A DNA stretch of 64,000 nt from Vampirovibrio chlorellavorus. Its GTDB lineage: Bacteria; Cyanobacteriota; Vampirovibrionia; Vampirovibrionales; Vampirovibrionaceae. Both the position numbers and the translations under genes were made by a program. This document shows, piece by piece, positions 6,509-49,308 of the stretch. The stretch lies in NCBI GenBank assembly GCA_001858525.1, contig LAPX01000004.1, positions 496,001 through 560,000 on the forward strand. The letters run 5' to 3'. The notes beneath the pieces were generated by a model, which saw only the letters and a list, made by a program, of their open reading frames with translations, made no database searches and was not told the DNA's origin. The stretch's first letter is position 1. Each line of letters starts with the position of its first letter.

Positions 6509-7351
6509 TTATCCGGACAATAGCGACAGGGCAATGCTGGGGAAGGTATTGACCCGAGCCAGTGCATAGGCCCCGGCTTGTTGCAGGATTTGCAATCGGG
6601 CCAGGTTGGAGGACTCGGCGGCCACATCGGTATCCCGAATGGAGGAGAGTGAGGCGGAGACGTTGGTTTTGGCAATACTCAGGTAATCCATTCGATCACT
6701 CAGCCGGTTTTCAAATCCCCCAATAGTGGCCAGGTTACTGGTCACGGTGTTAATGGCCGTATCCACTTGGCCTAGCAAGGTGGTGGCGTTGGCCGCCGTG
6801 GCCAGGGTGGTTTGGGTGATGTTCAGGCCGCTGGCCCCAGTGGTGTTATTGCTAAAGGCGGTTTTGATGTCAATGGTGTCTGAGCTATTAGAGCCGGCTT
6901 GAATGTTAAAGGCCGCTCCACCGGAGATAGAGCCATCCAGCAGGTTAAAATCGCCGTAGGTGGAGCCGGAGGCAATACTGGTGATGGCGGCCAGCTCCGC
7001 TGTCAAACTGGCCTGATAGGCTGTGTACTGGGCTGAGCTGTTGGTGCCATTGGCCGCCGATACGGCGATTTCCCGGATGTTTTGCAAGTGCTCGTTGATT
7101 TGCTGCAAGGCGCTGTCGGCGGTTTCAACCATGCTTAAGCCCTGTTGCAGGTTGGTAGTGGCCGCATCGTACCCCCGGATCTGGGTGTTCATGGTTTCGG
7201 CCAGCATCATTTGGGCAGCCCCATCGGCGGCCCGGTTTAGCTTATAGCCGGATGACAGCCGCTCCAGGCTTTTGTTCAGCCGGTTGTTGGTCAGGTTCAT
7301 GTATCGGGTAATGTTCAGCTCTAGGGCATTGCTGTTTAAGGTAATGGTCAT
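6509..7351 (-). CDS. Flagellin-like protein (paralogue 1), 280 aa
   Basis: Filament protein of the flagellum or a closely related hook-associated form. The N-terminal D0/D1 pattern is clear (NNRLNKSLERLSSGYKLNRAADGAAQMMLAE is recognisable as a divergent flagellin signature, positions ~22-52) and the C-terminal D1/D0 helices end in ARVNTFPSIALSLLSG. The central region is short. It differs from the second flagellin at 8454: it lacks the usual NT and QAAND box and has A-D-G-A-A-Q in place of D-D-A-A-G. SD AGAGGA precedes the ATG. The 77-residue gene at 7420 lies directly upstream on the same strand. Confidence 0.9.
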   Translation of the reverse strand: MTITLNSNALELNITRYMNLTNNRLNKSLERLSSGYKLNRAADGAAQMMLAETMNTQIRGYDAATTNLQQGLSMVETADSALQQINEHLQNIREIAVSAANGTNSSAQYTAYQASLTAELAAITSIASGSTYGDFNLLDGSISGGAAFNIQAGSNSSDTIDIKTAFSNNTTGASGLNITQTTLATAANATTLLGQVDTAINTVTSNLATIGGFENRLSDRMDYLSIAKTNVSASLSSIRDTDVAAESSNLARLQILQQAGAYALARVNTFPSIALSLLSG

Positions 7352-8453: not shown

Positions 8454-9326
8454 TTACTGCCGTTGCAGCAGGCTGAGAATTAAACGGGGGAGCTGGTTGG
8501 TCTGAGACAGAACAGTTGTGGCTGCCTCTGTCAGGATTTGCGCCTGGGTCATTTCGGCGGTTTCTGCAGCAATGTCTACATCTCGAATTCGGGAGTTGGA
8601 GGCTGAAAAGTTTTCCACGCCTTGTTCAAGGTTGCTGCTCACGCTTTCCAGCTCATTTTGAAAAGAGCCCACACGGGCGCGCTGCACGTTAACGGACCGC
8701 AATGCGGTGTCCACATCGGTGAGAAAGCTGGTGGCTACTGTGCTAGAGCTTAAGTCAATGGCCGCAATGCTTAGAAAAGTTGCTGGTGCGGACCCCACAA
8801 TGCCTAACCCGTCTGCGCTGGCATCGGTTAAGGCAGAGCTAAGATCCAGCGTATTGGTGCCCGCATTGGAGTTTGGGCCAATCTGGACTTGGGCGTTGGT
8901 GGTTGTGCCGTCCAATAAATTAATGCCATTGAGGTTGGTGGCCGCCGCGATGCGGTCAATGTCGTTTAAGAGTGACTTGATTTCATTGCTGATGGATTGC
9001 CGGGAGACTGCATCGTTGGTGTCGTTGGCCGCTTGAACCGTCAGTTCCCGCACCCGTTGCAGGTTATCCCCAATAATACTCAGAGAGCCTTCTGCGGTCT
9101 GCAGCACGCTAATGCCATCCTGCGTATTTCGAGAGGCCTGATTCATCCGGCGAATGGAACTGGTCAGGTTTTGAGAAATGGTCAAACCGGCTGCGTCATC
9201 GGAGGCCCGGTTGATTCGATAGCCTGAGGAGAGGCGCTCTAGAGATTGCTTGAGATTTTTGGAATTGGTCCCCAGCCGACGTTGGGCAATCAGCGAGGTG
9301 ATATTGGTATTTGGCACTAAAGACAT
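8454..9326 (-). CDS. fliC: Flagellin (paralogue 2), 290 aa
   Basis: Main filament subunit by its canonical sequence. The N-terminus has the full flagellin signature: NITSLIAQRRLGTNSKNL, SLERLSSGYRINRASDDAAG and the QAANDTND box near residue 100. The C-terminal helices include RARVGSFQNELE, SRIRDVDIAAE and end in LPRLILSLLQRQ. The ATG at 9326 is preceded by AAGGAGA; the longer frame to 9566 has no family match and was rejected. The central domain is short, as in compact flagellins. The gene is divergent from the ugd homologue at 9598. Confidence 0.95.
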   Translation of the reverse strand: MSLVPNTNITSLIAQRRLGTNSKNLKQSLERLSSGYRINRASDDAAGLTISQNLTSSIRRMNQASRNTQDGISVLQTAEGSLSIIGDNLQRVRELTVQAANDTNDAVSRQSISNEIKSLLNDIDRIAAATNLNGINLLDGTTTNAQVQIGPNSNAGTNTLDLSSALTDASADGLGIVGSAPATFLSIAAIDLSSSTVATSFLTDVDTALRSVNVQRARVGSFQNELESVSSNLEQGVENFSASNSRIRDVDIAAETAEMTQAQILTEAATTVLSQTNQLPRLILSLLQRQ

Positions 9327-9597
9327 AAGGCACGTTCTCCTTAACGTTTCCGCCATCGCCATTCCTTGGCGACAGTGTTTGGCAGGTTTGTTGATTTTGC
9401 TTTCGGTGGGTTTGGGTAAAAACTTGATAGTGACCGGCGGGGATTTCCTCCCAATGGATGACCCCAATATGCCGAAAGAGCTTGGTGTCTTGATGACACC
9501 TCCATTTTTGGGCTCAAACCCCTTGAAGCGTCTAGTTTTATGGTAAAGTAGAGGAAGAGAGTTCACGTGATACTTGTACGAAAGCGAGGGTTGGCCA
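9327..9597. other. Divergent promoter region between flagellin 2 and the ugd homologue
   Basis: No gene. A hairpin GGTGTC/GACACC with a 5-base loop lies at 9484-9500, within the likely 5' leader of the flagellin transcript. I found no good sigma-28 or sigma-54 consensus. Confidence 0.35.
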
Positions 9598-24063: not shown

Positions 24064-24112
24064 AAAAGGCAATTAGAACCATTTGATTGTTTTTATTTTA
24101 TCAAGTAAGCGT
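24064..24112 (+). repeat. Upstream element of collagen-like gene, copy 1
   Basis: A 49-base AT-rich block with AAAAGGCAATT, six variable bases, CATTTGATTG, a TTTTTATTTT run and TAAGCGT. A near-identical block lies at 24794-24840 before the second collagen-like gene. It sits ~100 bases before the ATG at 24215 and is a candidate promoter/operator. Confidence 0.65.
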
Positions 24113-24214
24113 AAATTAAGAAATTTTTAGCAGGTCGTTATTAAAGTATTTAATTTTATTTCTTGAGAGTTGATTTGAAATTTTAGAGAGAGCGCAAATT
24201 AAGGAGAAAGATTG

Positions 24215-24676
24215 ATGGCTTCATTAGGTTTAGGTGCAGGTCTTGGCGGTTATTCACCTTATGCTGCATTACGTCCCCCTGTTTATCCATTAGCGGCTGA
24301 TGCGGCCGGACTGGGTGGAGTAGGCTCCACTGGTTTACTCGGTGGTTTAGGTGGAGCAGGTTCTGCCAGTTTATTGGGTGGGGCTCCCGCCGCAAGTCCT
24401 TTGAGTGCGGGAAGCGCTTTGGCGGGTCCTGGTGCCGCTGGTGGCGGCGATTCAATGGTTCAGTTAATGTCTGCAGTAGTTCAATTAATACAAGCTTGTA
24501 TGACCCTGATGTCAGGTGGTGCGGCAGGGGCCAGTCCGTTTGGTGGTGCACTGGATGGTGCTAAACCTGGTGCTCCGGGTGCGCCTACTGGTGCTACGGG
24601 TAATACCGGAAATACCGGTGCTGCAGCAAAACCGCCCGCAGCGGCTGCCGGTGGTGGCGGTGGTGGTGGCTACTAG
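24215..24676 (+). CDS. Gly/Ala-rich collagen-like protein 1, 153 aa
   Basis: A low-complexity protein: an N-terminal Gly/Leu/Ala-rich region, a Met-rich hydrophobic helix (MVQLMSAVVQLIQACMTLM, residues ~80-100), a conserved GASPFGGAL, then GAPTGATGNTGNTG collagen-type G-X-Y triplets, and a tail of Ala/Pro then eight glycines. The protein at 25074 has the same helix-GASPF-collagen arrangement at its C-terminus, so they are paralogues. No signal peptide is visible. A strong AAGGAGA lies 8 bases upstream of the ATG. Function unknown; surface or extracellular fibres are a guess from the composition. Confidence 0.75.
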   Translation: MASLGLGAGLGGYSPYAALRPPVYPLAADAAGLGGVGSTGLLGGLGGAGSASLLGGAPAASPLSAGSALAGPGAAGGGDSMVQLMSAVVQLIQACMTLMSGGAAGASPFGGALDGAKPGAPGAPTGATGNTGNTGAAAKPPAAAAGGGGGGGY

Positions 24677-24710
24677 GCCTCTTCTGTTCCGCAAAACCGC
24701 CTAAATTTAG

Positions 24711-24740
24711 AAAGCAGTCCTATTTTAGGGCTGCTTTTTA
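24711..24740 (+). terminator. Rho-independent terminator after collagen-like gene 1
   Basis: A 12-bp stem AAAGCAGTCCTA/TAGGGCTGCTTT with one G-T pair and a TTT loop, followed by TTA and a second T-run (GATGTTTTTT). It lies 35 bases after the stop. Confidence 0.85.
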
Positions 24741-25073
24741 GATGTTTTTTATTGAGTAGAAATTTTGCTTAAAATTTATAGAAATTAATTAAAAAAAGGC
24801 AATTCCTGGCATTTGAATGTTTTTATTTTGATATAAGCGTGGTGTCAATGTATCCCATCCAGCATTTGTCCGATGCGCGGAGTGCATTGACCGTAATGAG
24901 AGAGTTAATTGATTTTTAGATTTGAATTAAAAACACAGTCAATAAGATGAGTTTGAAAAGTATCAGGAATTCTTAGCCCCTTGGTTTGAATGAGTCGAAT
25001 AACAGAATTTAATTTATTTCTAGTTTAGATCCAGTTTTTGAAAGAGATGAGCGCAAATTAGGAGAGTTAATCA
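24741..25073. other. AT-rich leader region of collagen-like gene 2
   Basis: No gene seen. It contains copy 2 of the upstream element and an AT-rich 5' leader. The last 25 bases carry AGCGCAAATTAGGAG, closely matching AGCGCAAATTAAGGAG before collagen-like gene 1. Confidence 0.45.
24794..24840 (+). repeat. Upstream element of collagen-like gene, copy 2
   Basis: Matches copy 1 (24064-24112) over its whole length apart from a six-base variable block, one A/T change and two or three missing bases before TAAGCGT. It lies 233 bases before the ATG at 25074 and just after the terminator of gene 1, as expected for an independent promoter region. Confidence 0.65.
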
Positions 25074-26162
25074 ATGCCTTATGCAGTTAGTCCATACAGT
25101 GTATCCCCATATGCAGCAGTTCCCGGTGCAGCTCCCGCTGCGGCTCAGGCCGTTCGGCAGCAAATTGCCAGTTTGAAACAGCTACAAGGTTATTCGGATG
25201 CGGCCGATAATGGCGGAAACATCGATCAGGGTAAAGCCAGACAAGCAGGTTTAACCCGTGCTTCTGTAGTAGAAGCTTACGCTGGTGAATTTATCCTGGG
25301 ATATCGTCCTGAGGGCGCTGGTGCCGGGCAAAAGCTGCAGCAAGGTGTTGGTCAGGTTTATCAGGATTTGAACTCTGCTGATCCCAATGCTAAAAATGCA
25401 GCCACGTTTGGTTTGGTGGCCTCGCGTTACAAAAACGCTGGTGGCAACTACAACAATGGCAAATTAAAAAAGATTTTGGAACAAAAAGCACCAGAATTCG
25501 CCAAAGGCGAGGGCGTCGGTAATAAAGACGTACAAACTTTGGGTGCCGTTTACAAGGCCATTAAAGCCGGTAAAGTGCAACTGAGTGACGTGTTTGATGG
25601 CACTGGTAATGATGCCGTTGACGATGATGGTAAATACCAAAAAGCCATTGATGCCGTCAAAGCCGGTGACCTTAACTCCGATATACAAGGCAAAGGTAAA
25701 GGCAAAGGTACGGGTGCTACCGGAAATACCGGTAACACAGGCAATACCGGTGGCGCTGGCGGTGCTGGTGCTCCTGGTGCGGGCGGTGCTGCCTATGATG
25801 CAGGAGCCCCTGCAGGAGCCGGAGCTGCCCCTGGTGCGCCTTCATCCGCCCTGGATGCCAGTGCTGCGGCCAATGGCCCAATGGCAATGATAATGGCCTT
25901 ACTGCAGATGCTGATGGCTATTTTGCAAATGTATATGGGTGGTGCCAGTCCCTTTAGCGGTGCCTTGGGTGCTGCGCCTCCCGCTGGAGCTGCTGCTACA
26001 CGAGCTCTCCCCGCTGCCGGTGCACCTACTGGCGCTACGGGTAACACCGGCAACACGGGTAACACCGGCAACACGGGTAATACCGGAAATACCGGCAATA
26101 CTGGCAACACCGGCAACAGCAAAAAAGGTGGTAAAAAAGGCGGCGGCGACGACGAAGATTAA
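25074..26162 (+). CDS. Collagen-like protein 2 with N-terminal helical domain, 362 aa
   Basis: Domain order: a Tyr/Ser/Pro start (YAVSPYSVSPYA); a helical domain at ~20-205 with no known family (SLKQLQGYSDAADNGG, ATFGLVASRYKNAGG, LGAVYKAIKAGKVQLSDVFDG); a first collagen tract at ~215-240 (GATGNTGNTGNTG then GAP/GAG triplets); an Ala/Pro region; a Met-rich helix (MAMIMALLQMLMAILQMYM) with GASPFSGAL; and a second tract GAT followed by eight GNT triplets and GNS. It ends KKGGKKGGGDDED. The C-terminal third mirrors protein 1. No signal peptide. The 'EF-hand-like' look of DGTGNDAVDDDGKYQ is noted but unproven. Secretion route and function are unknown. Confidence 0.8.
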   Translation: MPYAVSPYSVSPYAAVPGAAPAAAQAVRQQIASLKQLQGYSDAADNGGNIDQGKARQAGLTRASVVEAYAGEFILGYRPEGAGAGQKLQQGVGQVYQDLNSADPNAKNAATFGLVASRYKNAGGNYNNGKLKKILEQKAPEFAKGEGVGNKDVQTLGAVYKAIKAGKVQLSDVFDGTGNDAVDDDGKYQKAIDAVKAGDLNSDIQGKGKGKGTGATGNTGNTGNTGGAGGAGAPGAGGAAYDAGAPAGAGAAPGAPSSALDASAAANGPMAMIMALLQMLMAILQMYMGGASPFSGALGAAPPAGAAATRALPAAGAPTGATGNTGNTGNTGNTGNTGNTGNTGNTGNSKKGGKKGGGDDED

Positions 26163-40970: not shown

Positions 40971-41924
40971 CTAACGTAGATAATTCAGCAGGCTGCTTTG
41001 CATCAGCCGCCCTGTAATATTCAGGGAAGCCTCAAATACATTTTGTTGCTGGTTAATATTGGTAATCAGGCTGGGCATATCAATATCCTGAATACTGGCA
41101 AATTCCTGGGTCAGAATGGATTTACGCTCGTCAATGCGATCCTGGGTCAGGCTGAGGCGGTTTGAAGTGGCCCCAATAATAGATTGCTTGCTCAGGACGG
41201 TGTTCATGTTTGTGGTTAATTCGTCCAGTCGGGTGCGGATGTCAGCCAATTGAGTGGGGTTGCTGGAATCAGCCAGGTTTTGTTTGAGCTGAACCAGCGT
41301 GCGAAAAATACCCGATCCACCCACCGTAACCGGTGGGCCTACAGCAACCGTACTGTTGCCCATCATGTCTGCGCCATTGACATTAATGGTTACTTTGACC
41401 CCCCGAGCGATTTCCACTTCCCGCTCCCAGGACTCCGTAGTGGGGTTTCCGGTATAGGTCACATCATCGCCAGTGCGGCTAAAGGGTGGCCCATCGGTTT
41501 TGAAGCCGCCAAAGATGTATTTCCCCCCAATATCGGTATTGCCCAGTTGCACCAACTGGTTGATGATCTGGTCAATTTCCAGTCCGATGGCGTTTCGCCC
41601 ATCCTGGTTATTGGTAAAGTTGGCCGCCTGAGTGGTTAATTCCTGGGCCCGCTGAATGAGAGACACCATGCTGCTGATGGCATTATCGGCGGTATTGACC
41701 TCGGCAATGGAGTCCTGAACATTGCTGCTGTATCGCTCATCACTTTTTAGGGTGTTGGAAAGGGTCAAAATGCGGGTTAAGCCCACCGGATTATCGGAAG
41801 GGGCGTTGATGTTTTGTCCGGAAGATAAGGTCTGCTGCAAGGAAGAAAGCAGGGACATGTTGGTATTCAGGTAACCAAGGGCCTGATTTCTCATGTAGCT
41901 GGTGGTGACTCGGCTGATACTCAT
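40971..41924 (-). CDS. flgL: Flagellar hook-filament junction protein FlgL (HAP3)
   Basis: Joins the hook-associated FlgK to the filament. Of 317 residues, the N-terminal part has the flagellin-like helix MSLLSSLQQTLSSGQNINAPSDNP; the C-terminal part ends with QDIDMPSLITNINQQQ and LMQSSLLNYLR. Both ends match FlgL. It is the last gene of the flagellar cluster, 43 bases after flgK. No clear terminator was seen after it. Confidence 0.93.
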   Translation of the reverse strand: MSISRVTTSYMRNQALGYLNTNMSLLSSLQQTLSSGQNINAPSDNPVGLTRILTLSNTLKSDERYSSNVQDSIAEVNTADNAISSMVSLIQRAQELTTQAANFTNNQDGRNAIGLEIDQIINQLVQLGNTDIGGKYIFGGFKTDGPPFSRTGDDVTYTGNPTTESWEREVEIARGVKVTINVNGADMMGNSTVAVGPPVTVGGSGIFRTLVQLKQNLADSSNPTQLADIRTRLDELTTNMNTVLSKQSIIGATSNRLSLTQDRIDERKSILTQEFASIQDIDMPSLITNINQQQNVFEASLNITGRLMQSSLLNYLR

Positions 41925-41967
41925 GGCAGATGATCCTTACGATTGTCCAAAGTTTCACAGGCAGGCG

Positions 41968-43521
41968 TTAATTGACCATGCCGATAATAGTTTGGGTTAC
42001 CTGATCCAGAATGCTGATGGTTTTGGAAGTGGCTTCCAGCATGCGTTGATAGCGTAAGAGATCGATGGTTTCCTCATCGATATTCACCCCAGAGATGGAC
42101 TGACGCTGCTGTTCCACAGAGGTATTCAGGTTTTTCTGGTTTTGGCTGCCATTTTTGTAGCTTTGGGAGTCGATGCCCAATTTGGCGGTGGTGCTGTTAA
42201 AGTAATCCACCAGCCCGGTACCCAGGGAGGCAAAGGTCTGGTTTTTTAATTTGGCCATGGCTAAAGCGTTCCGACCATCGCCCACTCCGGCAAACCCGCC
42301 AGCCACAGTACTGTCATCGATGGCCGCGGCAATCAGCTTGGGATCGGCCAGAATGGCGGGATTCACTTTCCAGTGGAAGATGTTCAGGGTTTGCCCGGGA
42401 TTGAGTGTGGCGTCATTCAGAAAAAGCGGATCCGTGGCCAGGTTGCCACTCTGATCCCGCCCGGCTGGCAGGGGTGGGGCGGCCTGCCCCACTTGCAGAA
42501 TATTCAACTGGTCCACAATGGTGCCCATCAGGTTGTCCAGCTTGCCCATCATGTTGCGCACACTGCTCAGGTTGGGATCATTCCCCCCCATATCCAGAAT
42601 GCCCTTGATTTTTCCGCTGGTGATTTCAGCGCCACTACTGTCATTGAGAACCACCCCCCCATTGACCGTACTGACCAAGGCCGGAACATCATCCGGGGTG
42701 GGAGCGGCACCGGTATTTTCAAGGGCTTGCAGGCTATCCAGCTGGCTGACACCCTTGATCATGGATTGTCCGGCAATATCTAAATCAATTTGGCCGTTGT
42801 CATAGTAGGTGACATCAATGTTCACCAGATTGGACAGTTCATCCAGCAGTTTGTCCCGTTGATCCAGCAGATCGTTGGGTGCTGCGCCGGAGGCTTTAAT
42901 GCTGACAATGTTTTGGTTCAGGCCAGTAATGCTGGCCAGTTTCTGGTTGATATCATTGACCGTGATGGCCAGCTGGCTGGTTTCAAAACTATTGGGCGCC
43001 AATGGACTGCCCACCAGGTTTTGTCGCAGATCGGACAGTTGCAAGGCTTGTTGTTGGAAAACATCTACCAAATCCATGGCCTGTTGAACAAAGGTGGAAC
43101 GCACGGCGGCGTTTTGCGGGTTAATACTCAACGCTTGGGCAGAATCAAAGAAGCTTTGCAAGGCATCGTTCACCCCGCTGGTGGAGGGTTCATTCAGAAT
43201 TCCTTCCAGCTGTTTGAGGGCATCACGGGTGGATTCGTTTTGTCCCAGAGACCCGTTGGACAGGCGAAACTGGGCATCCAGAAACTGATCCCGCATCCGG
43301 GTGACCTGTTCCAAAATGGGGCCTTGTCCAATTTGCCCATTGGAAAGCTGTGAGGTGTTGGGGATAGAGTAGGCGTTATAGGCCATTAGATCCACCCGCT
43401 GACGGCTATAGCCTGGGGTGTTGGCGTTGGAGATGTTATGGTTAATGGTACTCAGGGCATTTTGAGCTGCGATTAGGCCACGGTGGGCGTTATAGAGACC
43501 GAAGAATCCCGGTGTAATCAT
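41968..43521 (-). CDS. flgK: Flagellar hook-associated protein FlgK (HAP1)
   Basis: A 517-residue hook-filament junction protein. The N-terminus GFFGLYNAHRGLIAAQNALSTINHNISNANTPGYSRQRVDL (read in parts) is the rod/hook signature typical of FlgK, and the C-terminus ends NIDEETIDLLRYQRMLEATSKTI (in parts) as expected. SD AGAGAGGT precedes the ATG. It lies between flgN and flgL, the usual order. Confidence 0.95.
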   Translation of the reverse strand: MITPGFFGLYNAHRGLIAAQNALSTINHNISNANTPGYSRQRVDLMAYNAYSIPNTSQLSNGQIGQGPILEQVTRMRDQFLDAQFRLSNGSLGQNESTRDALKQLEGILNEPSTSGVNDALQSFFDSAQALSINPQNAAVRSTFVQQAMDLVDVFQQQALQLSDLRQNLVGSPLAPNSFETSQLAITVNDINQKLASITGLNQNIVSIKASGAAPNDLLDQRDKLLDELSNLVNIDVTYYDNGQIDLDIAGQSMIKGVSQLDSLQALENTGAAPTPDDVPALVSTVNGGVVLNDSSGAEITSGKIKGILDMGGNDPNLSSVRNMMGKLDNLMGTIVDQLNILQVGQAAPPLPAGRDQSGNLATDPLFLNDATLNPGQTLNIFHWKVNPAILADPKLIAAAIDDSTVAGGFAGVGDGRNALAMAKLKNQTFASLGTGLVDYFNSTTAKLGIDSQSYKNGSQNQKNLNTSVEQQRQSISGVNIDEETIDLLRYQRMLEATSKTISILDQVTQTIIGMVN

Positions 43522-43569
43522 AGTGAACCTCTCTCACTGGGGTTGAAATTTTCCCTGGGTGTATTCCGT

Positions 43570-43639
43570 GATGAACCTGAAAAACTGGATGAACCTGAAA
43601 ATTGGATGAATTAAAAATCAGAACTGGATGAAAAATGGA
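43570..43639. repeat. Degenerate tandem repeat between flgN and flgK
   Basis: Four imperfect units beginning GATGAA: GATGAACCTGAAAAACTG, GATGAACCTGAAAATTG, a longer third unit and a truncated fourth. It lies in the 130-base spacer and would appear in the flgN-flgK mRNA. Confidence 0.55.
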
Positions 43640-43651
43640 CTAAACCCTGAA

Positions 43652-44176
43652 TCAAGCGGAGTGACTGATGGTTGATTGAGTGGCGTTACTGGGGTGATGG
43701 TTGCCCTTGGCCTGCTTTTCGCCGTGAGCGTTGTAACTGGCCGCATCCGGGTTCAGGGCGCTTCGAACCACCGCAATGGTGTCCTGAGTCCACTTGAGGG
43801 ACAGGGCCAACAAGTCCCGGTTTTCCCGATTTGATTGCTCCACGTCCAGGGCCAATCGCTTTAACTGTTCCCGCAATTGGGTTAGGCGCGGCACATATTG
43901 GGCGGGGAGTTGGGCAATGATGTGCTTGAGGGGTTGCTGCCCCCAGCCGGAATTTTGCGACAGTTCATTTCTTTTTTTGCTCAGGGTGGCGCATTGCTTG
44001 CCAATGCTGCTGAGTTCGCGATCAATGGTTGGCAGTTGATCGATGCTTCCGGTGACCAGGGCCTGTTGTTTCAACTGAAGCTGATGGCGTGCGGCTTCCA
44101 GCTGCTGGCTTTCCTGTTGCAATAAGGCGATCAGATCCTGAATGTGTTGCGGTATGGGTTGATGGTCGGCACTCAT
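43652..44176 (-). CDS. flgN: FlgN-like flagellar export chaperone
   Basis: A 174-residue, nearly all-helical protein. Its N-terminal LIALLQQESQQLEAARHQLQ and the later QQPLKHIIAQLPAQY, LTQLREQLKRLALDVEQSNRENRDLLAL-type (in parts) helices fit FlgN, which escorts FlgK and FlgL to the export gate. Its position just upstream of flgK supports this strongly. The last 30 residues are His/Asn/Ser-rich and not typical. GGAG precedes the ATG. Confidence 0.78.
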   Translation of the reverse strand: MSADHQPIPQHIQDLIALLQQESQQLEAARHQLQLKQQALVTGSIDQLPTIDRELSSIGKQCATLSKKRNELSQNSGWGQQPLKHIIAQLPAQYVPRLTQLREQLKRLALDVEQSNRENRDLLALSLKWTQDTIAVVRSALNPDAASYNAHGEKQAKGNHHPSNATQSTISHSA

Positions 44177-44192
44177 GGCTTTTTCGCTCCTC

Positions 44193-44492
44193 CTATACCC
44201 GGTAGTCGGCCAGCAGGCTTTCGCCCTGCTGGTAAGCCCGACGGATGTCTTGTTCGGTCACGCCCACAAAACCTGCTTTGGCCGCAATATTCTGAATGTC
44301 ATTGACCTTGCGCTGCCATTGCGGAGAGAGGGGCTGGCTTTGCATGGCCGCTGGGGCTTCTGGGGTTTCAATTTTAATTCGGGTGGCAGGGAAGTCACTG
44401 GCAGGTGCTTGCGGCTTGCTGGCACGACGTGCCTCCCAAGCCTGTTGGGCTTTGAGCATTTGTAACGACTGGGCACCGGATTCAATACGCAT
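44193..44492 (-). CDS. Small flagellar-cluster protein, possible FlgM (anti-sigma-28), 99 aa
   Basis: A basic N-terminal half, a Pro/Ala-rich linker and a helical C-terminal (QWQRKVNDIQNIAAKAG, VTEQDIRRAYQQGESLLADYRV). In many bacteria flgM sits next to flgN, and the length (~100) and C-terminal helices fit. However, the typical FlgM C-terminal motif (a G-x-Y-x-[VI]-D-x-x-x-[VI]-A pattern) is not clear. I therefore give no symbol. The GAGGTG site is good, and it starts two bases after the flgJ stop. Confidence 0.6.
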   Translation of the reverse strand: MRIESGAQSLQMLKAQQAWEARRASKPQAPASDFPATRIKIETPEAPAAMQSQPLSPQWQRKVNDIQNIAAKAGFVGVTEQDIRRAYQQGESLLADYRV

Positions 44493-44494
44493 GC

Positions 44495-44914
44495 CTATTT
44501 CACCTCACCATTTGTTCCCTGAACCATCGTTTGAGGGGCACCCGTTGCCCCGCTCGTTCCACTCTCGCTTTTTTTGCTGTTTTGAGACATTTGCCGATAG
44601 ATGCTTTCTGCCAGCCCAAAGCCACTGCCGCCTTGCTTGCTGGTCATCGATTTGGAGATTTCCTCGTTCAGCATGCTGCGGAAATACTCTTCGCTGCTGC
44701 CGCCATTTAAAAAGCTATCTTTGCGATCAATGGTTTTGTCCATGGCATCCAGCATTTGCTGCACGAAGATGGCTTCAAACTCTTGAGCGGCTTTTTTCAG
44801 CTTTTTCTGATCCTGATTTTCAGGATTCTGATATTGGCGCTGTAAATCCAGTAGCTTGGCCGTTTGGGCTTGGCCTTGCCATTGGGTGCCGCTGGTTGGT
44901 AAGTTTAAATCCAT
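44495..44914 (-). CDS. flgJ: Flagellar rod-binding protein (FlgJ N-terminal domain only)
   Basis: A 139-residue protein equal to the rod-capping half of FlgJ: KKLKKAAQEFEAIFVQQMLDAM, GSSEEYFRSMLNEEISKSM, GFGLAESIYRQM. The muramidase half is absent. The lytic enzyme needed to pass the rod through peptidoglycan is probably the separate transglycosylase at 49312 in the same cluster. It lies 35 bases after flgI. Confidence 0.88.
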   Translation of the reverse strand: MDLNLPTSGTQWQGQAQTAKLLDLQRQYQNPENQDQKKLKKAAQEFEAIFVQQMLDAMDKTIDRKDSFLNGGSSEEYFRSMLNEEISKSMTSKQGGSGFGLAESIYRQMSQNSKKSESGTSGATGAPQTMVQGTNGEVK

Positions 44915-44949
44915 CTTACTAATCCCTGTTTTTTTTAGATGATCTCAGG

Positions 44950-46089
44950 CTAGATAATCTCAAGCGTTGCTTCCAAGCTGCCAGACGCTTTGAGGGCTTG
45001 CAGCACGGAAATCAGATCACTGGGCGTCACGCCCAATGCGTTCAGGGCGGCCACCAGATCTTGCAGGGTGGCGTTAGCCCCCAGCTTGACCAAACTGCCC
45101 TGGGCTTTATCAATGGAAATTTTACTGTTGGAAACGCCCACGGTTTGTCCGCCTTGGCTAAAGCTATCCGGCTGAGAGACACTGTTGTCGGTACTTACGC
45201 TGACGGTAATACCCCCGTGAGCCACGGCGGCGGGCAGCAGTTTTACATTGTTGCCAATGACAATGGTGCCGGTGCGTTCGTTAATAACCACTTTGGCCAC
45301 TTCTTCAGTGGCGTTCACGGTCACGTTTTCCACCTTGGATAAAAAGGCCACCCGGTTATCAATAAACTGATCGGGGAACAGCACCCGCACGGTGCTACCA
45401 TCAATGGCTCGTGCCGGGGCCACGGTTTTACTGATGGACTCTGCCACCCGGCTGGCCAGGGTAAAGTCGGTGCGGTTCAGTACCAGGTCCATGCCATTTT
45501 CATCGCCAATATCCGTATGAATTTCCCGTTCCATAATGGCCCCACCGGGAATGCGGGCAGACGTGGTAATGGCCGTCCGCTTGGAAGAACCGCTGGCATC
45601 CACGGAGGTGCCGCCGGTGGATAAAGGGCCCTGGGCCAGTGCCACCACTTCCCCGTTGGGAGCGCGCAATTCGGTATTCACCAAAACGCCGCCTTCCAAG
45701 CTGGAGGCATCGGCCATGGAGGAAACCATCACATCCAGCGGATCGCCCTCTTTGGCAAAGGGCGGCACAATGGCGGTGATAATGACCGCAGCGGTATTGG
45801 TGGAGCGGATGTCGTTGTCGTTGTTCAAACGGCCGTTGAAGTTATTAATCAGGTTGGCGGTGCTGGTTTGGGTGGAGCGGCTTTTGTCCCCGGTTTTGCT
45901 CAGGCCCACCACCAGACCGTAACCCACCAATTGGTTGTTACGAACCCCTTTGACGTGAGAAATATCTTTCACCCGAAGGGTGGCCGCCGAAGCGCTGAAT
46001 CCCAGCAAGGCATGTCCTACGATGCTACCGAAGAGAAGCCCCCAGGCGATGATTTTGGTTTGAGTTGAATTCAATCCACGCATATCCAT
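44950..46089 (-). CDS. flgI: Flagellar P-ring protein FlgI
   Basis: Forms the peptidoglycan-level bushing around the rod. The 379-residue precursor has a signal peptide (GHALLGFSASAATLRVKDI; cleavage after ASA) and the conserved core DISHVKGVRNNQLVGYGLVVGL (in parts), KEGDPLDVMVSSMADASSLEGG (in parts), and INERTGTIVIGNNVKL. The C-terminus LQDLVAALNALGVTPSDLI is typical. Two ATG codons stand close together; the first has an acceptable AAAGGCGAG. Confidence 0.95.
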   Translation of the reverse strand: MDMRGLNSTQTKIIAWGLLFGSIVGHALLGFSASAATLRVKDISHVKGVRNNQLVGYGLVVGLSKTGDKSRSTQTSTANLINNFNGRLNNDNDIRSTNTAAVIITAIVPPFAKEGDPLDVMVSSMADASSLEGGVLVNTELRAPNGEVVALAQGPLSTGGTSVDASGSSKRTAITTSARIPGGAIMEREIHTDIGDENGMDLVLNRTDFTLASRVAESISKTVAPARAIDGSTVRVLFPDQFIDNRVAFLSKVENVTVNATEEVAKVVINERTGTIVIGNNVKLLPAAVAHGGITVSVSTDNSVSQPDSFSQGGQTVGVSNSKISIDKAQGSLVKLGANATLQDLVAALNALGVTPSDLISVLQALKASGSLEATLEII

Positions 46090-46098
46090 CTCGCCTTT

Positions 46099-46800
46099 CT
46101 AGTTAAAGAACTGGTAAATCTTGTTGGCGATACCGTCGTTTTGCTGACGGCTGATAATGCCTTTGCCGCCTTGCATCATCTGGAAGTTGGCCACCATATT
46201 GGAGCTAATCTGATTGTTTCTGTTGAGATAATAGGGCTTGATAATGCCGGTCACAATCAAGTCGGTGCGCTCTTTGCTGCCCTGTACCGTTTTTTGACCT
46301 TGCACCATCAAATCGCCGTTGGGCAGTATTTGTACGACCTGACAGGTAATGGTGTCTACCAGTCCGGTGGTGCGGTTAATTTCGGCCCGGCTGTTCAGTT
46401 CGTTGGAATTATCCAGTCCGTTGAAGTTGGGGGCTTGCAAGGCATTGTTAATGCGGCTGGTGTTGAAGGGCAGTTTGCCCAACATAAAGGTCACCATGGT
46501 GTTAAACAGACTACTGCCGTTTTGGGTGATGGTTTGATCCTTGGTCATGCGGATTTCGCTGCGCACCAGATTTTGGGTGGTTTCGTTGATCTGGATGGTC
46601 ACCAAATCGCCCACAGCCCGGGCAATGGGCGGGGTGAACAGGGAGCGGGACTGCACCGGCTCTTGGCCGCTATAGGTGGTGCTGGCCCGAAACAGGGATT
46701 CAGCAGAAGCGGGAGCCGTCTGGCTGAGTGAAGCCAGCAAGAGCAGGCCAACCAAAATGGCTTGGAGCGGCTGGCGTTTTTGAAGGGTGTTGCTTTGCAT
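46099..46800 (-). CDS. flgH: Flagellar L-ring protein FlgH, apparently without lipidation site
   Basis: Outer-membrane ring subunit of the basal body. The 233-residue protein has GDLVTIQINETTQNLVRSE, INRTTGLVDTITCQVVQILPNGDLMVQGQKTV (in parts) and GIIKPYYLNRNNQISSN, all FlgH hallmarks. FlgH is usually a lipoprotein, but this N-terminus (LLLLASLSQTAPASAESLF) has no cysteine and instead ends in a type I site (ASA). The ATG at 46800 has AGGGAGAA upstream; the frame to 46980 has no family match. Confidence 0.93.
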   Translation of the reverse strand: MQSNTLQKRQPLQAILVGLLLLASLSQTAPASAESLFRASTTYSGQEPVQSRSLFTPPIARAVGDLVTIQINETTQNLVRSEIRMTKDQTITQNGSSLFNTMVTFMLGKLPFNTSRINNALQAPNFNGLDNSNELNSRAEINRTTGLVDTITCQVVQILPNGDLMVQGQKTVQGSKERTDLIVTGIIKPYYLNRNNQISSNMVANFQMMQGGKGIISRQQNDGIANKIYQFFN

Positions 46801-46864
46801 CTTGTTTGGTTCTCCCTGACGTTCCCTGAGTGTTTGGACGAGTGTACTGACCGGGGGGAATGAT

Positions 46865-47629
46865 TTACATTTCAACCAGTACCTTGTTTTTATCCACGAT
46901 TTTGGCGCTGTAATACTTGCGCTGAAACACAGCCTGACGCACCCGGATGATTTCCCCGATTTTGCCGTTGGCCAAGGCAATGCCCGGCACAGTAACGGTC
47001 ATGCCATCCCCGTTGGACATAAAAATACGCACCGGGCTGTTGTAGCTAACATCCGGCGGAATGACGATTTTACGGGCATCCAGAATATCGCCGGGCCGCA
47101 GGTTGACCCGTGCCAGATAGGTTCCAAGATTGCGATCGGCACCCACGGCATAGTTGTAGCAGTTGCTCACATCCTTGCTTTGCAGGCTAAAATCGGAGGC
47201 TCGCAGCGGTTCATTGGCGTTGACCACGTTTTTGATCACCCAAACCGGCTTCTGAATGATAATTTGTACCGGCACCCCAATTTCCCGCTGATGACCACTG
47301 CCATCTTGCAGGGAAACCTGTACGATGCCCCGGGGGGAGTACACTTCCCCCAACCGGGAGGTGATGCTGATTTTAATATCCTGCGGTGTTTTGGCTGCCG
47401 GGAAATCAAAGGGGGCTGCCGGAACCCGGATAATGGAAACGCTGATGTTTTTGGCATCCGCAGGGTCCACCACCTGAGCCACTTTTTCCTGAACGTGGGC
47501 CACCACTTTGTCTTTAATTTGCCCTTCGGTCAGCACCACCGCTTCAGAGGAATGCCACAACCCACCGCAAAGCCCCAGCAGGACACCTGCCAGGGAGAAA
47601 AGCGCAGATTTTAATGCAATGCGGGTCAT
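46865..47629 (-). CDS. flgA: Flagellar P-ring assembly chaperone FlgA
   Basis: Periplasmic chaperone for FlgI. The 254-residue protein has a signal sequence (SALFSLAGVLLGLCGGLW) and a C-terminal SAF domain: VVNANEPLRASDFSLQSKDV, YLARVNLRPGDILDARKI and PVRIFMSNGDGMTVTVPGIALANGKIGEIIRV (in parts). It lies between flgG and flgH, as in many clusters. Confidence 0.92.
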   Translation of the reverse strand: MTRIALKSALFSLAGVLLGLCGGLWHSSEAVVLTEGQIKDKVVAHVQEKVAQVVDPADAKNISVSIIRVPAAPFDFPAAKTPQDIKISITSRLGEVYSPRGIVQVSLQDGSGHQREIGVPVQIIIQKPVWVIKNVVNANEPLRASDFSLQSKDVSNCYNYAVGADRNLGTYLARVNLRPGDILDARKIVIPPDVSYNSPVRIFMSNGDGMTVTVPGIALANGKIGEIIRVRQAVFQRKYYSAKIVDKNKVLVEM

Positions 47630-47662
47630 GGAATTATCCTTGGTTTAGGGCGGGGGTTAGGG

Positions 47663-48454
47663 TTAAATGGTGTTATTGGCCGTTTTCAGCAGTTCATCGG
47701 AAGCCTGAATGACCTTGGAGTTGGCTTCAAAAGCCCGCTGAGCGCTAATCAGGTTGATCAGCTCTTCCACGATTTGCACGTTAGAGCCTTCCAGAAAGCC
47801 TTGGGTGATGATGGTTTTGGAGAAATCACCCTGTCCGGCGGTGCCTTGCACGGCGGACCCGGATGCGGGGGTTTCCTGAAACAGGTTACGCCCGATGCTT
47901 TCCAAACCAGCGGGGTTGGAGAAGCGAACCAGCTGCAACTGCCCAATTTGGTTCAGGGTGGTCGAACCAGCTTGGCGCACAGAGATGGTACCGTTCAGGC
48001 CAATGACAATTTCAGTGGCATCATTGGGAATGGTAATGTTGGGCTGTACCGGGTAACCATCGGAAGTTACCAGCGTGCCGTTGGCATCGCGTTTAAAGCT
48101 GCCATCGCGGGTGTAGCCAATACTGCCGCCGTCGGTTTGCACCTGAAAGAACCCTTCCCCTTGCAGGGCCAGGTCCAATGGGTTGCCGGTTTGCTGAACC
48201 GATCCCGGCAGGAAGATACGTTGCGTGGCGGAAACCTGAACCCCCAAGCCCACCTGAATCCCCACGGGATCAGTGGTTCCCTGATCGCCAATGGAACCAG
48301 CCGCAGAATAAGTCTGGCTGAGCAAGTCCTCAAATTCGGCCCGGGCCTTTTTGTAGCCAGTGGTATTCACGTTGGCCACGTTGTTGGCGATGACATCGAT
48401 ATTGAATTGTTGGCTGTTGGAGCCGGTGGCTGCGGTGTATAGGGCTCTTAGCAT
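47663..48454 (-). CDS. flgG: Flagellar distal rod protein FlgG
   Basis: A 263-residue rod protein. LYTAATGSNSQQFNIDVIANNVANVNTTGYKKAR (in parts) and LDLALQGEGFFQVQ, SIGYTRDGSFKRDANGTLVT are FlgG signatures, and the C-terminus ENVQIVEELINLISAQRAFE-like reads as SNVQIVEELINLISAQRAFEANSKVI. GGAGG precedes the ATG. It is directly downstream of flgF. Confidence 0.95.
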   Translation of the reverse strand: MLRALYTAATGSNSQQFNIDVIANNVANVNTTGYKKARAEFEDLLSQTYSAAGSIGDQGTTDPVGIQVGLGVQVSATQRIFLPGSVQQTGNPLDLALQGEGFFQVQTDGGSIGYTRDGSFKRDANGTLVTSDGYPVQPNITIPNDATEIVIGLNGTISVRQAGSTTLNQIGQLQLVRFSNPAGLESIGRNLFQETPASGSAVQGTAGQGDFSKTIITQGFLEGSNVQIVEELINLISAQRAFEANSKVIQASDELLKTANNTI

Positions 48455-48531
48455 GCGGGCCTCCGATTGTGGGTTGGATTCCGGTGAAAAGATTTTTAGG
48501 GTGGAAAGTTCTGACGATTTTGTTTCAGGGT

Positions 48532-49308
48532 TTAGCGGGGACGACCGACTTCGTTCACCGCTTTGCCCAAGGTGTCGTTATGCACGTGGATATTCTTTTG
48601 CAGGGCCTCGTAAAGGCGCAGGCCCTGAATGTTGTTGACCAGTTCGGCCACGGGGTTGATATTGGACTCTTCCAGCATGCCAGCACTCACTTTGTAGTTA
48701 AACGATTCCCCCACTTTGGGATCGGGCAGTTTTTTACTGGCGCTGGTGGTTTGATACAAGTTTTCGCTGACCTTTTCCAGGGTACGATTGTCTTCAAAGC
48801 GCACCACCTGGAGTTGATCAATGGTGCCATTGCGACCGCTAACGTTCCCTTGTCCGTTGATGTTAAAGGGGCCACCGTCCAGCGCCAGCTGGATGTTGCC
48901 CAATTTCCCCTGTACAAAATCACCGTTCACAGTGGTTAAAAATCCGTTTTGGTCCATGGTGAAGTTGCCGGCGCGGGTGTAGTAGGTGTTGCCATTGATT
49001 TTGGATTTCACGGTAAAAAAGCCATCGCCTTGAATGGCCAGATCAAAGGTATTGCCGGTTTGTTGTAGGGCGCCGGGGGCAAAGTTGATATAGCTACCGC
49101 GTACTTTGCTACCAGTCACCAGACTGCCTACCCGCTCTTGCCCCTGACTGCTCATACGGTTGATCAGCATTTCGGGGAAGGTTTGGTAGTTGACTTTATT
49201 TCCTTTAAAGCCCACCGTGTTGACGTTAGACAGGTTACTGGCCAGCGTATCGGTGCCCGTGGTGGATGCCAGCATCCCGGCGGCAGCGGTGTATAGACCT
49301 TTCAACAT
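48532..49308 (-). CDS. flgF: Flagellar proximal rod protein FlgF
   Basis: A 258-residue FlgF/FlgG-family rod protein. It has GLYTAAAGMLASTTGTDTLASNLSNVNTVGFKGN (in parts), LDLA-like FDLAIQGDGFFTV and YYTRAGNFTMDQNGFLTT, and ends with NINPVAELVNNIQGLRLYEALQKNI. The absence of the full ISAQRAFE motif argues for FlgF rather than a second FlgG. Its ATG comes three bases after the transglycosylase stop (translational coupling). Confidence 0.88.
   Translation of the reverse strand: MLKGLYTAAAGMLASTTGTDTLASNLSNVNTVGFKGNKVNYQTFPEMLINRMSSQGQERVGSLVTGSKVRGSYINFAPGALQQTGNTFDLAIQGDGFFTVKSKINGNTYYTRAGNFTMDQNGFLTTVNGDFVQGKLGNIQLALDGGPFNINGQGNVSGRNGTIDQLQVVRFEDNRTLEKVSENLYQTTSASKKLPDPKVGESFNYKVSAGMLEESNINPVAELVNNIQGLRLYEALQKNIHVHNDTLGKAVNEVGRPR

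What the first reader, a model, noticed from the sequence alone, without database searches (positions are those of the whole stretch)
24215..26162. Two-gene family of collagen-like proteins sharing helix-GASPF-GNT architecture
Seen: both proteins carry a Met-rich hydrophobic helix, a GASPF(G/S)GAL motif and GAPTGATGNT triplets; the second adds a 185-residue helical domain and eight GNT repeats. Neither has a signal peptide. The region is AT-rich between genes. Inference: a surface or extracellular fibre system, perhaps used for attachment to prey or host, with an unknown export route. The helix-GASPF unit could be the export or assembly signal.
Basis: partly seen in the sequence, partly recalled or inferred. 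Interest (0 to 1): 0.65.

Follow-up and report, generated by a model that had tools for sequence, protein, structure and literature searches.

The report
Co-regulated collagen-like proteins of predatory bacterium
Two neighbouring genes of an alga-killing bacterium belong to a previously undescribed family of long, repetitive proteins that share their own genetic on-switch with dozens of other probably exported proteins, and that may form part of the surface the bacterium uses on its prey.

Summary
In detail: window 24215-24676 (153 aa) and 25074-26162 (362 aa) encode signal-peptide-less proteins sharing a Met-rich helix, GASPF(G/S)GAL and GNT triplets. "Two-gene family" is too small. The second protein's helical domain (AlphaFold pLDDT 93.8) matches no Pfam family and no fold in the PDB or viral libraries. 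It recurs with the same helix/GNA-repeat architecture in other Vampirovibrionales and in genomes labelled Eremiobacterota, Myxococcaceae, a Chromatiales symbiont and others. The main new finding is upstream: each gene has its own 32-bp element, RGCAATT-N13-TGTTTTTATTWW (24068-24099, 24798-24829). It precedes 18 of 21 family genes and 0 of 44 other window genes, with no reversed-pattern hit in 240 genomes. It also precedes unrelated, mostly signal-peptide-less proteins (calpain-like protease, metallopeptidases, VWD, RTX-like), many with a similar helix; flagellin and secretion-apparatus genes lack it. The genome has a second, non-flagellar type III secretion core. I infer an exported prey-contact regulon, perhaps type III substrates. 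Export, fibre formation and prey binding are not shown, and the tracts are almost proline-free, so a triple helix is uncertain.

The parts
24068..24099 (+). upstream element 1 (GGCAATTAGAACCATTTGATTGTTTTTATTTT), 115 bp before the P0001 start
24190..24209 (+). leader gagcgcaaattaaggagaaa with ribosome-binding site of P0001; near-identical leader before P0002
   Evidence: same leader in relative L015
24215..24676 (+). P0001, 153-aa Gly/Ala-rich protein, no signal peptide, C-terminus GGGGGGGY
24455..24511 (+). P0001 hydrophobic Met-containing helix (aa 81-99)
24527..24553 (+). GASPFGGAL of P0001 (aa 105-113)
24590..24616 (+). GATGNTGNT triplets of P0001 (aa 126-134)
24705..24743 (+). terminator-like hairpin after P0001 (18-pair stem, T-rich tail): the two genes are probably transcribed separately
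   Evidence: consensus match only; 2 found in the region, 3.0 expected in shuffles
24798..24829 (+). upstream element 2 (GGCAATTCCTGGCATTTGAATGTTTTTATTTT), 244 bp before the P0002 start
25049..25069 (+). leader gagcgcaaattaggagagtta with ribosome-binding site of P0002
25074..26162 (+). P0002, 362 aa, no signal peptide
25161..25691 (+). P0002 all-helical domain (aa about 30-206), conserved across several phyla, no solved or viral fold match
25713..25748 (+). first Gly-X-Y tract of P0002 (GATGNTGNTGNT, aa 214-225)
25881..25937 (+). P0002 Met-rich hydrophobic helix (aa 270-288)
25941..25967 (+). GASPFSGAL of P0002 (aa 290-298)
26031..26120 (+). second Gly-X-Y tract of P0002 (GAT, eight GNT, GNS; aa 320-349)
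26121..26159 (+). basic-acidic C-terminal tail KKGGKKGGGDDED (many other members end in GGxY, two in acidic residues + Cys)

Best explanation
P0001 and P0002 are two members of a large, modular protein family made as part of a dedicated regulon of mostly signal-peptide-less proteins. Shown: the shared upstream element, the repeated helix module, the conserved domain of apparently new fold, the Gly-X-Y tracts, and two type III-type export cores in the genome. Inferred: the proteins are exported without the Sec pathway, most likely through the second (non-flagellar) type III apparatus; the Met-rich helix and following motif act as a docking, membrane or assembly segment; the Gly-X-Y tracts act as extended spacers, perhaps trimeric; and the helical domain is the functional head at the surface that contacts prey or host. 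P0001 would be the short helix-only partner and P0002 the domain-bearing one, each with its own promoter.
For: Element before 18/21 family genes (111-338 bp upstream, sense strand) and 0/44 other window genes; homologues found by protein search alone carry it. 72 distinct sites in 12 order genomes, no reversed-pattern hits. The same element precedes helix-bearing or disordered proteins joined to calpain-like protease, metallopeptidase motifs, VWD-like, RTX-like and EF-hand-like parts. Only 4 of 76 predicted proteins have a strongly hydrophobic N-terminal segment. Two export gates, two FliP/SctR and two FliF/SctJ ring proteins per genome, with flagella-less relatives keeping only the second set; its cytoplasmic ring protein scores best as SctQ. 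11 of 12 domain-carrying genomes outside the order have an FlhA/SctV gene. V. chlorellavorus is reported to attach by a pad of unknown composition (PMC4451040).
Against: No family gene lies beside a type III gene and no chaperone gene was seen. The element is absent from flagellin and type III structural loci, so nothing ties the regulon directly to an apparatus. FlhA/SctV is common (186/240 in the class), so co-occurrence is weak evidence. 47 of 76 predicted element proteins fall below the hydropathy threshold used for the helix, although that scale scores Met-rich helices low. One G190 element precedes motA. The Gly-X-Y tracts have almost no proline. No localisation data exist.
Confidence: 0.4

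Rival explanations
1. The proteins are exported, but by another route: type I, the conjugative type IV system proposed for V. chlorellavorus, or the flagellar export gate.
For: A published proposal puts a type IV system at the attachment pad (PMC4451040); an RTX-like protein is in the regulon (L068), and such proteins usually use type I (general knowledge); the flagellar gate is present.
Against: No type I or IV gene was seen next to family genes, but I did not search those systems genome-wide. Flagellar late genes in the window (flgK, flgL, flagellins) lack the element.
Confidence: 0.25
2. The proteins are intracellular: a cytoplasmic scaffold or condensate-forming set made at one stage of life, and never exported.
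For: No signal peptides; one regulon member is a SAM-dependent methyltransferase-like protein (L028, L097) and others look like cyclases (L104, L121), which fit the cytoplasm.
Against: Protease, metallopeptidase, VWD-like and RTX-like members suit an outside role; the Tanganyikabacteria homologue L252 starts with a signal-peptide-like segment.
Confidence: 0.22
3. The element is the flagellar late-gene promoter of this lineage and the two proteins are flagellar or motility accessories.
For: A site lies before motA in G190; motif-rich genomes are mostly flagellated; flagellar genes flank the pair in the window.
Against: 16 flagellin loci and the flagellar clusters examined have no site; G227 has no flagellin and no flagellar-type FlhA but 10 sites.
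Confidence: 0.08
4. The Gly-X-Y tracts are low-complexity drift without a triple helix; only the domain and helix matter. (This can be true together with any of the other readings.)
For: Almost no proline; tract length varies from 4 to 41 triplets.
Against: Glycine every third residue is kept in distant phyla, with mixed synonymous codons in P0002.
Confidence: 0.3

Closest known systems
Bacterial collagen-like proteins (Scl1/SclA, BclA, Pasteuria Pcl)
   Same: Gly-X-Y tracts of variable length joined to a globular domain; often adhesins
   Different: no LPXTG or exosporium leader, no signal peptide, tracts are GNA/GNT with almost no proline, head domain unrelated; the NCBIfam SclA match is chance level (E 9.2)
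Type III secretion substrates (effectors, translocators)
   Same: no signal peptide, low-complexity N-terminus, some with hydrophobic segments; regulon includes protease-like proteins
   Different: not encoded with apparatus or chaperones; export untested
Needleless T3SS* of Myxococcus xanthus (PMC12075869)
   Same: a predatory bacterium with a type III-like basal body used at prey contact; the domain also occurs in genomes labelled Myxococcaceae
   Different: no shown link between these proteins and that complex
Phage tail fibres with collagen-like repeats (PHROG 8745)
   Same: Gly-X-Y repeats (E 3.4e-5)
   Different: the match lies in the repeats only; no phage relative of the domain was found

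Membership tests
Bacterial collagen-like proteins | uninterrupted Gly-X-Y tract | tested here: met
   10 triplets in P0002, up to 41 in relatives
Bacterial collagen-like proteins | proline-containing triplets | tested here: not met
   proline in 0.7% of 1026 triplets
Bacterial collagen-like proteins | trimeric triple helix | not testable with these tools
   single-chain model leaves the tracts disordered
Bacterial collagen-like proteins | surface export signal or anchor (signal peptide, LPXTG) | tested here: not met
   sequence reading; no Pfam or NCBIfam domain
Type III secretion substrates | no Sec signal peptide | tested here: met
   hydropathy of N-termini
Type III secretion substrates | genome encodes a type III export apparatus | tested here: met
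   two FlhA/SctV, two FliP/SctR, two FliF/SctJ
Type III secretion substrates | linkage to apparatus or chaperone genes, or shared control with them | tested here: not met
   neighbours are housekeeping genes; element absent from the apparatus loci examined
Type III secretion substrates | type III-dependent export | not testable with these tools
   needs an experiment
EF-hand proteins | match to the EF-hand profile or fold | tested here: not met
   DNGGNID-like loop only by eye; no Pfam hit, no fold match
Phage tail fibres | relatives in phages | tested here: not met
   no relative in viral contigs

The most novel reading that the evidence does not exclude
A predatory non-photosynthetic cyanobacterial lineage has an undescribed prey-contact secretome: dozens of Sec-independent proteins, many with a common Met-rich helix module, switched on together by one dedicated promoter-like element and exported by a second, non-flagellar type III apparatus; part of it is shared across phyla with other presumed predators or symbionts.
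Probability: 0.3. Interest if true: 0.85.

Novelty: new variant of a known kind. Interest (0 to 1): 0.62.

Why it matters
If true, it would give a molecular candidate for the unidentified attachment pad of Vampirovibrio and a list of co-regulated candidate predation proteins that can be read directly from genomes by one DNA element. The domain is a conserved protein family with no described structure or function, found in several phyla. The idea is testable by simple localisation and expression experiments.

Tried and rejected
Pfam, NCBIfam and PHROG scans of the two proteins: nothing beyond repeat-driven matches. PDB sequence search: only TG-linker repeats; profile search gave no credible hit. 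Phage origin: none. EF-hand reading of the domain: not supported. Flagellar-promoter reading of the element: contradicted by flagellin loci. Sigma-70 promoter at the element: the consensus scan finds none there. Element in distant phyla: not found near the Eremiobacterota, Myxococcaceae and similar loci. The coiled-coil MGFAASQAR proteins in the regulon: no informative match. Rfam and tRNA search of element sites without an ORF: nothing. Held paper library: nothing on a type III system in Melainabacteria beyond passing mentions, and no collagen-like protein report for Vampirovibrio seen among the titles.

Full report
WHAT IS THERE. The two ORFs are real and correctly placed. P0001 (24215-24676) is a 153-aa Gly/Ala-rich protein; P0002 (25074-26162) has 362 aa. 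Shared parts are a hydrophobic Met-containing helix, GASPF(G/S)GAL and GNT triplets; pairwise similarity is confined to the helix-GASPF stretch. P0002 adds a helical domain, which AlphaFold models at pLDDT 93.8 from a 22-sequence alignment. In the full-length model only this domain and the helix at 270-288 are structured. Neighbours are housekeeping genes (mutY upstream, a methylase and haem genes downstream, by reading the translations); flagellar genes flgL, flgK, flgI and flgG and two flagellins lie about 15-25 kb away on either side.

A LARGER FAMILY. P0002 homologues occur in 9 of the 18 genomes of the own order (own included), often several per genome, with two weak hits elsewhere in the class. 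Modules are shuffled: helix before or after the domain, GNA tracts up to 41 triplets, C-terminus often GGxY. A profile of the domain found 31 loci in public genomes. They include Vampirovibrio and genomes labelled Eremiobacterota, Myxococcaceae, Deltaproteobacteria, a Chromatiales symbiont, Tanganyikabacteria and unclassified bacteria, at about 30-50% identity, most with the same helix and GNA architecture. These are mostly metagenome bins, so labels and completeness are uncertain. Foldseek found nothing alike in the PDB or in viral models, and no Pfam family matches. I therefore call the fold apparently new, with the reservation that no library of predicted cellular structures was available.

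THE UPSTREAM ELEMENT. The two genes have 82%-identical 39-bp stretches upstream. A genome scan for the pattern gave ten sites with no reversed-pattern control hit; a scan of 12 order genomes gave 78 sites, again with no control hits. The exact core occurs in 63 of 240 class genomes, 16 of 18 in the own order, with no control hits in any of the 240. As a check, family genes found by protein search alone carry it: 18 of 21 within 500 bp upstream in sense, against 0 of 44 other window genes (Fisher p 2.7e-13). Related genomes are not independent, so the p-value overstates the case. Ten of the 21 genes contributed sites to the weight matrix; of the 11 others 8 score, and a ninth (L013) has a site starting about 509 bp upstream. 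Sixteen flagellin loci and 22 type III or flagellar structural loci have no site. The element therefore marks a regulon. Whether it is a sigma-factor promoter or an activator site is not known.

WHAT ELSE IS IN THE REGULON. Downstream genes encode mostly signal-peptide-less proteins, many with a Met/Leu/Gln-rich helix, joined to a calpain-like protease (L094, Pfam 2.7e-9), metallopeptidase motifs (L067, L076, L099, L112, L117), a VWD-like domain (L105, below the Pfam cut-off), RTX-like repeats (L068), EF-hand-like acidic proteins by eye (L029, L078), a methyltransferase-like protein (L028, L097), cyclase-like proteins (L104, L121) and coiled coils (L102, L114). Only 4 of 76 predicted proteins have a strongly hydrophobic N-terminal segment. 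ORF choice downstream of sites was automatic, so a few assignments may be wrong.

EXPORT ROUTE. The genome carries two sets of type III core genes; relatives without flagella keep only the second set. NCBIfam does not clearly assign the second FlhA/SctV, which falls below both cut-offs, while the cytoplasmic ring protein is nearest SctQ, also below its cut-off. Of 12 domain-carrying genomes outside the order, 11 have an FlhA/SctV, but that gene is common. Type III export is thus an inference from missing signal peptides and co-occurrence, not a demonstration. Published work proposes a type IV system at the attachment pad of V. chlorellavorus (PMC4451040), and a needleless type III-like complex serves prey killing in Myxococcus (PMC12075869); neither tests these proteins.

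HOW SURE. Family and regulon: high. Exported prey-contact function: moderate to low. Type III route: low to moderate. Fibre or triple helix: unproven, and somewhat disfavoured by the near absence of proline.

Noticed in passing
G000:C26:467000-486500 (L182), G000:C23:1-3000 (L156), relatives L183-L187: A second, non-flagellar type III secretion core (SctQ, SctR, SctS, SctT together; SctL-SctV elsewhere) in Vampirovibrionales, kept by flagella-less members of the class (G020, G227).
   Followed up: partly
G240-G244, G246, G247: Genomes carrying the domain, several labelled Eremiobacterota, have many extra proteins matching only the C-terminal cytoplasmic part of FlhA/SctV (about profile 320-656), up to 15 matches per genome.
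   Followed up: no
L064, L074, L091 downstream of the element: About 390 nt of strongly conserved sequence without a clear ORF and without an Rfam or tRNA match: possible small RNA in the regulon.
   Followed up: partly
L278:7751-9499 and L279:12252-14009; L281:12489-13733: Related B12-binding radical SAM proteins sit close to the domain gene in two unrelated genomes (Chromatiales symbiont, Tanganyikabacteria); a tryptophan halogenase lies near another domain gene.
   Followed up: partly
window 6509-7351, 8454-9566, 40971-49308: Two flagellins and a flagellar axial cluster (flgL, flgK, flgI, flgG); the own genome has 11 Flagellin_N matches.
   Followed up: partly
L151:1900-2655 (G190): motA preceded by the same element in another family of the class.
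   Followed up: yes
L092 (G002:C211:3217-8200): Three tandem genes instead of two: an additional P0001-like gene before the pair, each with its own element.
   Followed up: yes
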